A stretch of 64,000 nucleotides of DNA. It comes from Psychrobacter sp. ANT_WB68. GTDB taxonomy: Bacteria > Pseudomonadota > Gammaproteobacteria > Pseudomonadales > Moraxellaceae. The stretch is taken from assembly GCF_008369115.1 (NCBI RefSeq), contig NZ_VOAZ01000003.1:496001-560000 (forward strand). Reading direction: 5' to 3'. The translations under genes were made by a program, and so were the position numbers. Of this stretch, positions 3,706 to 4,905 are shown one piece after another (the first letter of the stretch is position 1; the number at the start of each line of letters is the position of its first letter). The notes below the pieces were generated by a model. It was not told the origin of the DNA. It saw only the letters and a program-made list of their open reading frames with translations, and did not search any database.

Positions 3706-3743
3706 CTGAATTCGGGATAAATCTGTTTTTATCTCGAATTCAG
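3706..3743 (-). terminator. Hairpin between the barstar gene and gltS
   Basis: Arms CTGAATTCGGGATAAA and TTTATCTCGAATTCAG pair over 16 bp with one mismatch and a 6-nt loop. There is no clean T tract on the minus strand, so this may be a Rho-assisted end, an RNA-stabilising hairpin or an operator for gltS rather than a classical terminator. Confidence 0.5.
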
Positions 3744-3752
3744 ATTCTTATC

Positions 3753-4136
3753 TTATGGGCGACTCAAAGAATCGTCGGACGCCACAACAATCCATAATTT
3801 CGGTTTGCCAAAATCTTTATAAGCGTCCTCAATGATGCTCTTAAAGACATTAAAGTCCTCAGTGTTGATTTTTTCTACCTTATTTAAGTAAAGCGTGAAA
3901 TCTGTGATATCACTATCGGTTAAACAGTCCCAAGCGCTGTCCCAATTATGGGCAAAATAGCTCGGAAAATTGGCGGCTTTTGCTAAGCTGGTCAGTAGCG
4001 TTTCTTTATCTAAAACATCGCCAATTGGAATGTTAATCGCTTGCTCAGGAATGCCGTCCACAAAGGCTTTATTTTCCTGCTCAATGTCGTTTTGATTGAT
4101 GCTGTTTTGATTAACATAGTAAATAGCTTGGCTCAT
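3753..4136 (-). CDS. Barstar-family ribonuclease inhibitor
   Basis: A 127-aa protein with the barstar core FPSYFAHNWDSAWDCLTD at residues 57-74. Aligned to Bacillus barstar, Tyr60, Asn64, Asp66, Trp69 and Asp70 occupy the places of Tyr29, Asn33, Asp35, Trp38 and Asp39; Tyr29 and the two Asp residues plug the barnase active site. No signal peptide is visible, so it should be cytoplasmic. It starts 1 bp after the stop of the upstream ribonuclease gene and is almost certainly cotranscribed with it. By family knowledge it would bind and block that RNase. The first 35 residues are not recognisable as barstar. Confidence 0.88.
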   Translation of the reverse strand: MSQAIYYVNQNSINQNDIEQENKAFVDGIPEQAINIPIGDVLDKETLLTSLAKAANFPSYFAHNWDSAWDCLTDSDITDFTLYLNKVEKINTEDFNVFKSIIEDAYKDFGKPKLWIVVASDDSLSRP

Positions 4137-4137
4137 A

Positions 4138-4905
4138 CTAGTTTACCTCTAACGGTCGAAAGCTATCGTAATGGTCGACGGTCAAATAATAGACGGTTGG
4201 TGGATGACCGCCTGTCACAATACGCCGTGCGCCTCGATCAGAAATCCCCGGCGTAGGTACGGTATATTCCCGATAATAGCCTTGCGACTGGGCAGGTAGC
4301 TTGCCTTCACGATTATAGAAAGTCGTGCCATCTTTATTCGGATAGGGGAACGGCCCGCCTTGCTGAATAAGCGCCAGTGTCTGATCTATTTGTGCATCAC
4401 CCGTGATAGCTGCTGCACTGGAGCTAGTGGTTTTAGATGCCGTCTGTGATATAGGCGTTGTTTGCATGCCATCTGCAAACAAACTGGATTTTAAATCCCC
4501 AAAGAGGTAAACCGCGATGGCAATAATGGCGATTAAACTCAATAAGGTAGAGAAACTGCTTTTCTTGTTTTGGCTGCCACGAGTATTTTTCTGCTGATTG
4601 TTTTTCTGATAAGCGTTTCGATTATTTTTATGCTGAGTCTTATCTACATTGCGATGCGCTGAATTTGTCACTGAATTTGATGCTGAAGTTGCTAAAATAC
4701 TTAATTCATCAGAGGTAACTTCAGTCGCGCGCAATTGATTTTTTTCATTACGCTGACTATTAAAATAGACGCGTTGACCTTCGTTGATAGGTTGCGCCAA
4801 GCGCACGGTGCTGATATGAAAGAAGACATCTTCACTTTGATTGTCTACCTCGATAAAGCCGTAGCCTTTATCGGCATTCCAGTGTTTAATTTTGCCGCTT
4901 TGCAT
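4138..4905 (-). CDS. Cold-shock domain / transmembrane / guanyl-specific ribonuclease fusion
   Basis: The 255 aa hold three parts. Residues 1-66 are a cold-shock domain with RNP1 KGYGFIEV (13-20) and RNP2 DVFFHIS (26-32). Residues 67-117 form a polar Asn/Gln/Lys-rich linker. Residues about 118-138 are one hydrophobic helix. Residues about 168-255 match the RNase Sa/barnase family along their length, including GPFPYPNKDG, NREGKLP, YYREYTVPTPG and the final DHYDSF. The RNase Sa catalytic set Glu54, Arg65, Arg69, His85 corresponds to Glu213, Arg224, Arg228 and His245, all present, so an active enzyme that cleaves after guanosine is likely. Topology is inferred: nucleic-acid-binding domain in the cytoplasm, RNase outside. 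The barstar gene follows directly. Confidence 0.88.
   Translation of the reverse strand: MQSGKIKHWNADKGYGFIEVDNQSEDVFFHISTVRLAQPINEGQRVYFNSQRNEKNQLRATEVTSDELSILATSASNSVTNSAHRNVDKTQHKNNRNAYQKNNQQKNTRGSQNKKSSFSTLLSLIAIIAIAVYLFGDLKSSLFADGMQTTPISQTASKTTSSSAAAITGDAQIDQTLALIQQGGPFPYPNKDGTTFYNREGKLPAQSQGYYREYTVPTPGISDRGARRIVTGGHPPTVYYLTVDHYDSFRPLEVN

What the first reader, a model, noticed from the sequence alone, without database searches (positions are those of the whole stretch)
3753..4905. Cold-shock domain fused through a membrane helix to an active-looking guanyl-specific RNase, with a dedicated barstar
Seen: in one 255-aa protein an intact CSD (RNP1 13-20, RNP2 26-32), a single hydrophobic helix (118-138) and an RNase Sa-like domain with Glu213, Arg224, Arg228, His245; 1 bp later a barstar homologue retaining the interface Tyr and Asp residues. 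Known: RNase Sa/barnase enzymes are secreted and barstar protects the producer. Inference: a membrane-tethered nuclease whose cytoplasmic CSD binds RNA, or whose RNase domain is released or delivered outward, with the inhibitor guarding the cytoplasm. It could act in cold-dependent RNA turnover, in competition between cells, or in defence by self-poisoning. I do not recall a characterised protein of this layout.
Basis: partly seen in the sequence, partly recalled or inferred. Interest (0 to 1): 0.8.

Follow-up and report, generated by a model that had tools for sequence, protein, structure and literature searches.

The report
Membrane-tethered cold-shock RNase with barstar guard
Most Psychrobacter species sampled carry a single protein that joins a cold-shock domain, a predicted membrane anchor and an RNase domain with its whole catalytic set, beside a gene for the likely RNase inhibitor barstar; the RNase is predicted to face outward into the cell envelope while the cold-shock part likely binds RNA inside, which would make it a new twist on the familiar secreted RNase with an internal bodyguard.

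Summary
Window 4138-4905 (-) encodes a 255-aa CSD - basic linker - hydrophobic helix - RNase Sa protein; a barstar gene (3753-4136, -) starts 1 bp after its stop. In the genus, 83 of 105 genomes have an RNase Sa domain and all 83 have barstar just downstream (one of the 83 is a different, 1469-aa frame). All 236 distinct fusions counted keep the four catalytic residues; 235 of 236 have more K/R before the helix than after it. CSD and RNase are under strong purifying selection, linker and spacer are not. The fusion also occurs in Cardiobacteriaceae and nests in a proteobacterial family of exported RNase Sa + barstar pairs. Best reading: a periplasm-facing, membrane-tethered RNase with a cytoplasmic CSD head and a barstar guard. 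Natural variants weigh against a toxin-antitoxin or a tightly coupled sensor: one Cardiobacteriaceae genome keeps the fusion with no barstar found; one Psychrobacter keeps anchor, RNase and barstar without the CSD; 5 of 22 empty sites hold relics (one weak). What the CSD does is inferred, not shown. New variant of a known kind; moderate interest.

The parts
4138..4905 (-). CSD-TM-RNase Sa gene, 255 aa, ATG start, TAG stop
   Evidence: 95% identical relative P0001
4708..4905 (-). cold-shock domain, residues 1-66 (RNP1-type KGYGFI 13-18, RNP2-type VFFHIS 27-32)
   Evidence: PF00313 52.7 bits; F28, F29, H30 invariant in 236 of 236, F17 in 235; CSD fold
4555..4707 (-). basic, Asn/Lys-rich, probably disordered linker, residues 67-117
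   Evidence: pLDDT mostly under 50; median dN/dS 0.49 for residues 67-115
4492..4554 (-). hydrophobic membrane helix / signal anchor, residues 118-138
   Evidence: best 19-residue window starts at 118; 8 K/R in the 30 residues before and 2 in the 30 after; modelled with low confidence
4405..4491 (-). variable Ser/Thr-rich spacer, residues 139-167, predicted periplasmic
   Evidence: median dN/dS 0.54
4141..4404 (-). RNase Sa (guanyl-specific RNase) domain, residues 168-255, with E200, E213, R224, R228, H245
   Evidence: PF00545 75.8 bits, 1mgr E 9.9e-24, fold 1pyl TM 0.81 by target length, dN/dS 0.049
3753..4136 (-). barstar homologue, 127 aa, starts 1 bp after the RNase stop
   Evidence: PF01337 50.3 bits; fold matches to barstars, best E 1.1e-3; Y60, D66, D70 aligned with barstar 29, 35, 39

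Best explanation
The gene pair encodes a protein with a cold-shock domain, one hydrophobic helix and an RNase Sa domain, predicted to sit in the inner membrane with the RNase in the periplasm and the cold-shock head in the cytoplasm, plus a barstar that likely blocks any RNase that folds before export. Shown here: the domains, the conserved catalytic set, the charge asymmetry around the helix, the selection pattern, the gene order, and membership of the RNase domain in a family whose other members mostly carry export-type N-termini. Inferred: the RNase cuts RNA that reaches the periplasm (from lysed neighbours or extracellular matrix), as a tethered counterpart of secreted RNases. Inferred and weaker: the CSD binds RNA or single-stranded DNA at the inner face of the membrane, most likely messenger RNA being translated there (its own or other U-rich membrane-protein mRNA, as E. 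coli CspE/CspC do), and so ties synthesis of a dangerous enzyme to its point of export. The RNase-anchor unit is the core; CSD and barstar are each missing in single natural cases.
For: Barstar directly downstream on the same strand in 83 of 83 Psychrobacter genomes with an RNase Sa domain. All of E213, R224, R228, H245 kept in 236 of 236 distinct fusions; hydrophobic helix in 236 of 236; more K/R on its N side in 235 of 236 (the set is mostly Psychrobacter). Median dN/dS 0.080 (CSD), 0.049 (RNase), 0.13 (helix) against 0.49 and 0.54 for linker and spacer, 46 sequences; saturated pairs dropped and median dS above 1, so rough. Of 94 CSD-less relatives 88 have a hydrophobic export-type N-terminus, 19 of them with a lipobox-like motif (L141 doubtful; simple hydropathy and pattern rules, no signal-peptide predictor), and barstar lies downstream in 91 of 95 loci. 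RNase tree: fusions fall in one clade with support 99/94 that also holds 4 CSD-less rows; a single CSD clade is not rejected, p-AU 0.43. CSPs bind U-rich membrane-protein mRNAs in E. coli (PMC4520561, abstract read).
Against: No experiment shows topology, RNase activity, inhibition or RNA binding. AlphaFold2 models the helix with low confidence. Cardiobacteriaceae genome G718 keeps the fusion with no barstar beside it or found elsewhere (best match E 0.13, below cut-off, with a stop inside), and Halomonas locus L149 shows no adjacent barstar, so the guard is not always needed. G007 lacks the CSD but kept anchor, RNase and barstar, and three more genomes have the CSD cut off or frame-broken while the RNase frame stays open. 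23 of 105 genus genomes lack the RNase at this locus. No cold link was tested; no Rfam element lies at the locus and promoter-like sites are fewer than in shuffles.
Confidence: 0.6

Rival explanations
1. A toxin-antitoxin or abortive-infection pair: the RNase domain stays in the cytoplasm, barstar is the antitoxin, and the CSD senses foreign or cold-damaged RNA and frees the toxin.
For: The genes are tightly packed (barstar start assigned at +1 or -32 from the RNase stop in the 57 loci L006-L035 and L039-L065, first start codon by script), and barstar is present in 83 of 83. In relic locus L193 the barstar remnant is longer than the RNase remnant, and L194, L198 and L199 gave barstar remnants only.
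Against: Basic linker before the helix in 235 of 236 and export-type N-termini in 88 of 94 relatives put the RNase outside; G718 keeps an intact RNase with no barstar found in the genome; the locus is a stable chromosomal site and no plasmid or phage record held most of the query; PADLOC gives only a cold-shock-domain profile, CSD_V.
Confidence: 0.12
2. A competition effector: the RNase domain is clipped from the anchor and delivered to rival cells, barstar giving self-immunity.
For: RNase Sa domains also sit in long frames of the kind seen in polymorphic toxins (G072 1469 aa; G148 2144 aa).
Against: Pfam finds no delivery domain in the fusion; the RNase domain is highly conserved (mean identity to the window 0.89) and kept at one site in many species, unlike diversifying toxin tips (the last point is recalled knowledge).
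Confidence: 0.1
3. The CSD has no RNA role in this protein; it is a retained fusion that only serves as a soluble N-terminal domain of a signal anchor.
For: In-frame loss in G007 with the rest kept; CSD-less relatives in Halomonas and in a sister genus nest near the fusions; CSD cut off or frame-broken with the RNase frame open in G046, G098 and G075.
Against: Median dN/dS 0.080 over the CSD, and the nucleic-acid face is 233-236 of 236 conserved at G14, Y15, F17, F28, F29, H30; a CSD before a membrane helix recurs with an excalibur domain in a distant genome (L225).
Confidence: 0.18

Closest known systems
Secreted RNase Sa / barnase with barstar (PF00545 + PF01337)
   Same: Same RNase fold and catalytic set, barstar partner directly downstream, RNase predicted to leave the cytoplasm
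   Different: The signal peptide is replaced by a CSD, basic linker and a helix that looks uncleaved (by eye); no cysteine in the last 90 residues, which span the RNase domain, in 236 of 236
Lipoprotein-type RNase Sa + barstar pairs, mainly Thauera/Azoarcus
   Same: Cell-envelope RNase Sa with barstar downstream
   Different: Tethered by a lipobox-like signal instead of a CSD-helix
CSD - membrane proteins with DUF1294 (own genome L005) or excalibur (L225)
   Same: N-terminal CSD followed by one or more membrane helices
   Different: Their C-terminal part is DUF1294 or a small excalibur domain, not an RNase
CspA/CspE cold-shock proteins
   Same: CSD fold and nucleic-acid face
   Different: Free proteins of about 70 aa; NCBIfam cut-offs for CspA/C/D/E are not reached

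Membership tests
RNase Sa / guanyl-specific RNase (PF00545) | profile match over cut-off and catalytic Glu, two Arg, His | tested here: met
   75.8 bits, cut-off 24; 236 of 236 keep the residues
RNase Sa / guanyl-specific RNase (PF00545) | guanyl-specific RNase activity | not testable with these tools
   no bench data
Barstar (PF01337) | profile match and fold | tested here: met
   50.3 bits, cut-off 23.4; the first 29 fold hits are barstar or barnase-barstar chains by title and length, best E 1.1e-3
Barstar (PF01337) | binds and inhibits its RNase | not testable with these tools
   only aligned Tyr/Asp positions
Cold-shock domain (PF00313) | profile match with RNP-type aromatic face | tested here: met
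   52.7 bits, cut-off 27; conservation
Exported RNase-barstar pair | export signal before the RNase | tested here: met
   hydrophobic helix with basic N side; by hydropathy and charge only; a cleavable signal peptide was not tested
Exported RNase-barstar pair | barstar gene beside the RNase gene | tested here: met
   window and 83 of 83 in the genus; exceptions elsewhere: none found in G718, none adjacent in L149, L110, L173 and L175, the last at a contig end
Type II toxin-antitoxin | toxin does not persist without its antitoxin | tested here: not met
   in a relative, G718: intact RNase fusion, no barstar found
Anti-phage defence system | match to described defence families or defence neighbours | tested here: not met
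   only the CSD_V profile, 36.5 bits, over the CSD; neighbours are gltS and proA

The most novel reading that the evidence does not exclude
A transmembrane RNA-coupled nuclease: RNA bound by the cytoplasmic cold-shock head sets how much of a periplasmic RNase is made, exported or released from barstar, so that one protein links the cell's internal RNA state, for example at low temperature, to destruction of RNA in its envelope.
Probability: 0.2. Interest if true: 0.78.

Novelty: new variant of a known kind. Interest (0 to 1): 0.52.

Why it matters
Secreted RNase-barstar pairs are textbook material, mostly from Gram-positives (recalled). Here the pair is a common chromosomal trait of one proteobacterial genus, one RNase Sa domain per positive genome, in which the export signal has been rebuilt as an RNA-binding-type head plus anchor, kept under strong selection. 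The natural losses (of the CSD, of barstar, of the whole pair) make three questions directly testable in laboratory strains: why a cytoplasmic nucleic-acid-binding domain is tied to an extracytoplasmic RNase, when an exported RNase needs its inhibitor, and whether CSD-membrane proteins (with RNase, excalibur, DUF1294) form a membrane-bound RNA-handling class.

Tried and rejected
Cold-shock regulation of the locus: no Rfam element, and only 2 promoter-like sites against 4.4 expected from shuffles, so nothing is claimed. A broad hunt for CSD-helix relatives by protein search returned 1 hit from 14 candidates; replaced by a CSD scan of 58 class genomes and reading 20 chosen long frames, not every long frame listed: one CSD-helix-excalibur (Pfam), two DUF1294 fusions (L224 by Pfam, L237 by eye), one CSD-helix with a short tail, three helix-first proteins, one plain CSD behind an unrelated open stretch, twelve ribosome-hibernation-type proteins (the last three groups by eye). 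Mobile origin: no plasmid or phage record held 80% of the query in one place; the 500-bp GC windows over the pair (0.38-0.46) lie within the range of its flanks (0.35-0.48). Three independent fusions: the tree needs 3 label changes, but one CSD clade is not rejected, so a single fusion is the simpler reading. Structure of the RNase-barstar complex was not modelled. Literature: ten searches in all. Searches returned nothing; one unrelated listing each; one search listed a cold-adapted Psychrobacter RNase R, a different enzyme; none of the titles listed is on such a protein. One search (RNase Sa active site) found nothing, so residue roles are recalled. Only the abstract and outline of PMC4520561 were read; all other papers were seen as search listings.

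Full report
What is there. On the - strand, 4138-4905 encodes 255 aa and 3753-4136 encodes 127 aa, one base apart. Pfam finds a CSD at 3-64, an RNase Sa-type domain at 160-251, and barstar in the second protein, all above cut-off. The RNase aligns to Streptomyces RNase Sa3, Sa2 and Sa, with Glu200, Glu213, Arg224, Arg228 and His245 on Sa positions 41, 54, 65, 69 and 85; their roles in guanine binding and catalysis are recalled. Barstar aligns only weakly by single sequence (E 0.03); the first 29 fold hits of its model are barstar or barnase-barstar chains, judged by title and length, with the best E at 1.1e-3 and none at 0.001 or below. The full-length model has confident CSD and RNase folds and a low-confidence middle. 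Neighbours are gltS and proA.

Where it occurs. G000 is the window's genome. Named proteins 84-85% identical to the window's are Psychrobacter, and one source already calls such a protein 'guanyl-specific ribonuclease Sa/cold shock CspA family protein'. In the genus 83 of 105 genomes carry an RNase Sa domain and the same 83 carry barstar; each of the 83 has a barstar match downstream on the same strand, 71-216 bp from the RNase match. One of them, G072, is a 1469-aa frame and not this protein. Of the remaining 82, 76 are judged intact: 49 read directly and 27 inferred from open frames of 247-296 aa. The other six: G095 runs into a contig end; G046 has a stop between CSD and RNase; G098 and G075 have a frame break in the CSD; G087 shows only the CSD and the end of the RNase, in different frames; G007 lacks the CSD. 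In the wider family (348 genomes, the 105 included) only two more hits appear, G148 (2144-aa frame) and G337, a short CSD-less RNase with barstar. In the class (369 genomes) 15 have the RNase; beyond the window one is a CSD fusion, L103, with barstar next to it. Both genomes held of its genus have the fusion; the second, L241, encodes P0122, named Cardiobacteriaceae bacterium TAE3-ERU3. One database protein, P0123, carries two RNase domains, the second with Gln in place of the catalytic Glu (read by eye).

Is it kept. I collected 249 fusion sequences (12 CSD-less proteins removed first), 237 of them distinct; the tandem P0123 was set aside, leaving 236. The set is the top of two searches plus the loci and is mostly Psychrobacter. 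All 236 keep E200, E213, R224, R228 and H245; F28, F29, H30 are invariant and F17 and Y15 are 235 of 236; all have a strongly hydrophobic helix; 235 of 236 have more Lys/Arg in the 30 residues before it than after, means 6.9 and 1.4. Median pairwise dN/dS in 46 Psychrobacter fusions: CSD 0.080, helix 0.133, RNase 0.049, linker 0.49, spacer 0.54, barstar core 0.10. Saturated pairs were left out (571 of the CSD, 275 of the RNase and 809 of the barstar-core comparisons), as were pairs with hardly any synonymous change, and median dS is near or above 1, so the values are rough; the contrast between domains and linkers is the point.

Which way it faces. The basic linker before the helix predicts N-in/C-out (positive-inside rule, recalled). 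An independent line: among 94 CSD-less relatives from 95 loci, 88 have a hydrophobic export-type N-terminus, 19 of these with a lipobox-like motif, mainly Thauera/Azoarcus (L141 doubtful). This rests on a hydropathy rule and a pattern, not on a signal-peptide predictor; the six exceptions are a fragment, a contig-start frame, a weak match and three noisy stop-to-stop frames. Barstar lies downstream in 91 of the 95 loci; missing in L110, L149, L173 and L175, the last with only 98 bp of contig left. The relatives are therefore best read as exported RNases guarded inside by barstar, and the fusion as one of them with a rebuilt export signal.

Natural experiments. (a) G718 (L241) keeps the fusion with all catalytic residues but has a DNA-polymerase-Y-like gene (named by eye) on the opposite strand downstream, and no barstar was found in a genome rated 100% complete (best match E 0.13, below cut-off, with a stop inside). 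Halomonas L149 also has no barstar beside its CSD-less RNase. (b) G007 (L248) reads MQSGK and then directly the linker: 166 aa of anchor plus RNase, followed by barstar, Pfam finding no CSD. (c) Of 23 genus genomes without the RNase at this locus, 22 proA loci could be read (G062 runs off its contig). In 15 gltS is found downstream of proA within the locus, in L200 and L201 behind another gene; in 7 it is not. Five of the 22 gave remnants of RNase and/or barstar: L193, L194, L198 and L199 firmly (best E 1e-17 to 2e-7), L196 weakly (17 residues, E 0.006), against a mean of 0.2 loci in five shuffles and 0 in the reversed sequence. So at least four species lost a pair they once had; the order proA - pair - gltS in many other species suggests that the site is ancestral in much of the genus.

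Origin. In a tree of 129 RNase domains (89 columns; many forks unresolved) the fusions fall in one clade of 39 rows, support 99/94, together with three Halomonas rows and G337 that lack the CSD; the label needs three changes. In a quick tree of 51 of these rows, holding all 35 fusion rows together is not rejected, p-AU 0.43. One fusion is the simplest reading; among losses of the CSD only that in G007 is clear. CSD before a membrane helix is itself recurrent: the window's own genome has a CSD-DUF1294 protein (L005), and a distant genome has CSD-helix-excalibur (L225).

How it works. Best supported: a periplasm-facing RNase tied to the inner membrane, barstar catching enzyme that folds before export. 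Shown: domains, conservation, charge pattern, gene order, a family of relatives with export-type N-termini. Inferred: enzyme activity, topology, inhibition, substrate (RNA arriving in the periplasm). Least certain is the CSD. [quoted passage not shown] coli bind U-rich and membrane-protein mRNAs (PMC4520561, abstract), so an inner-face CSD could hold mRNA where export happens. G007 shows that the CSD can be done without, and the strong selection on it elsewhere says it is not idle. A toxin-antitoxin reading is disfavoured by (a) and by the predicted topology; a defence reading has no support beyond a cold-shock-domain profile.

Novelty. Each part belongs to a known family and the operon logic is known. 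The combination is recorded by automatic annotation, but none of the searches named in Tried and rejected listed a paper on it. I rate it a new variant of a known kind.

Noticed in passing
L248 (G007) about 1206-1379: A roughly 175-bp stretch between proA and the CSD-less RNase gene has inverted ends (TAGGGCGTGTCCTCA ... TGAGGACGCGCCCTA, one mismatch), like a small transposable element inserted upstream (by eye).
   Followed up: no
G072:C1:3104741-3105270: RNase Sa domain in a 1469-aa frame followed by a weak barstar match (21.7 bits, below cut-off), perhaps a polymorphic toxin and its immunity gene; the proA locus of the same genome (L196) holds a weak RNase relic.
   Followed up: partly
L036, L037, L038 and places in G079, G104, G084, G077, G063, G078: Nine further barstar matches in nine Psychrobacter genomes that are not next to an RNase Sa domain; partners unknown.
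   Followed up: no
P0123: 385-aa fusion with CSD, helix and two RNase Sa domains, the second with Gln for the catalytic Glu.
   Followed up: partly
L052 1453-1902 and other barstars: The first ~30 residues of Psychrobacter barstars are Asn/Gln-rich, vary in length (NQN/INQN units) and evolve faster than the core (dN/dS 0.34 against 0.10).
   Followed up: no
G056:C1:2098805-2100407: Three cold-shock-domain matches with nearly equal scores in tandem within 1.6 kb; sequences not compared.
   Followed up: no
window 3706-3743: 16-pair inverted repeat between barstar and gltS, terminator-like.
   Followed up: no
L225 295-846: CSD, basic linker, membrane helix and an excalibur calcium-binding domain in a distant gammaproteobacterium: same layout, different outer domain.
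   Followed up: partly
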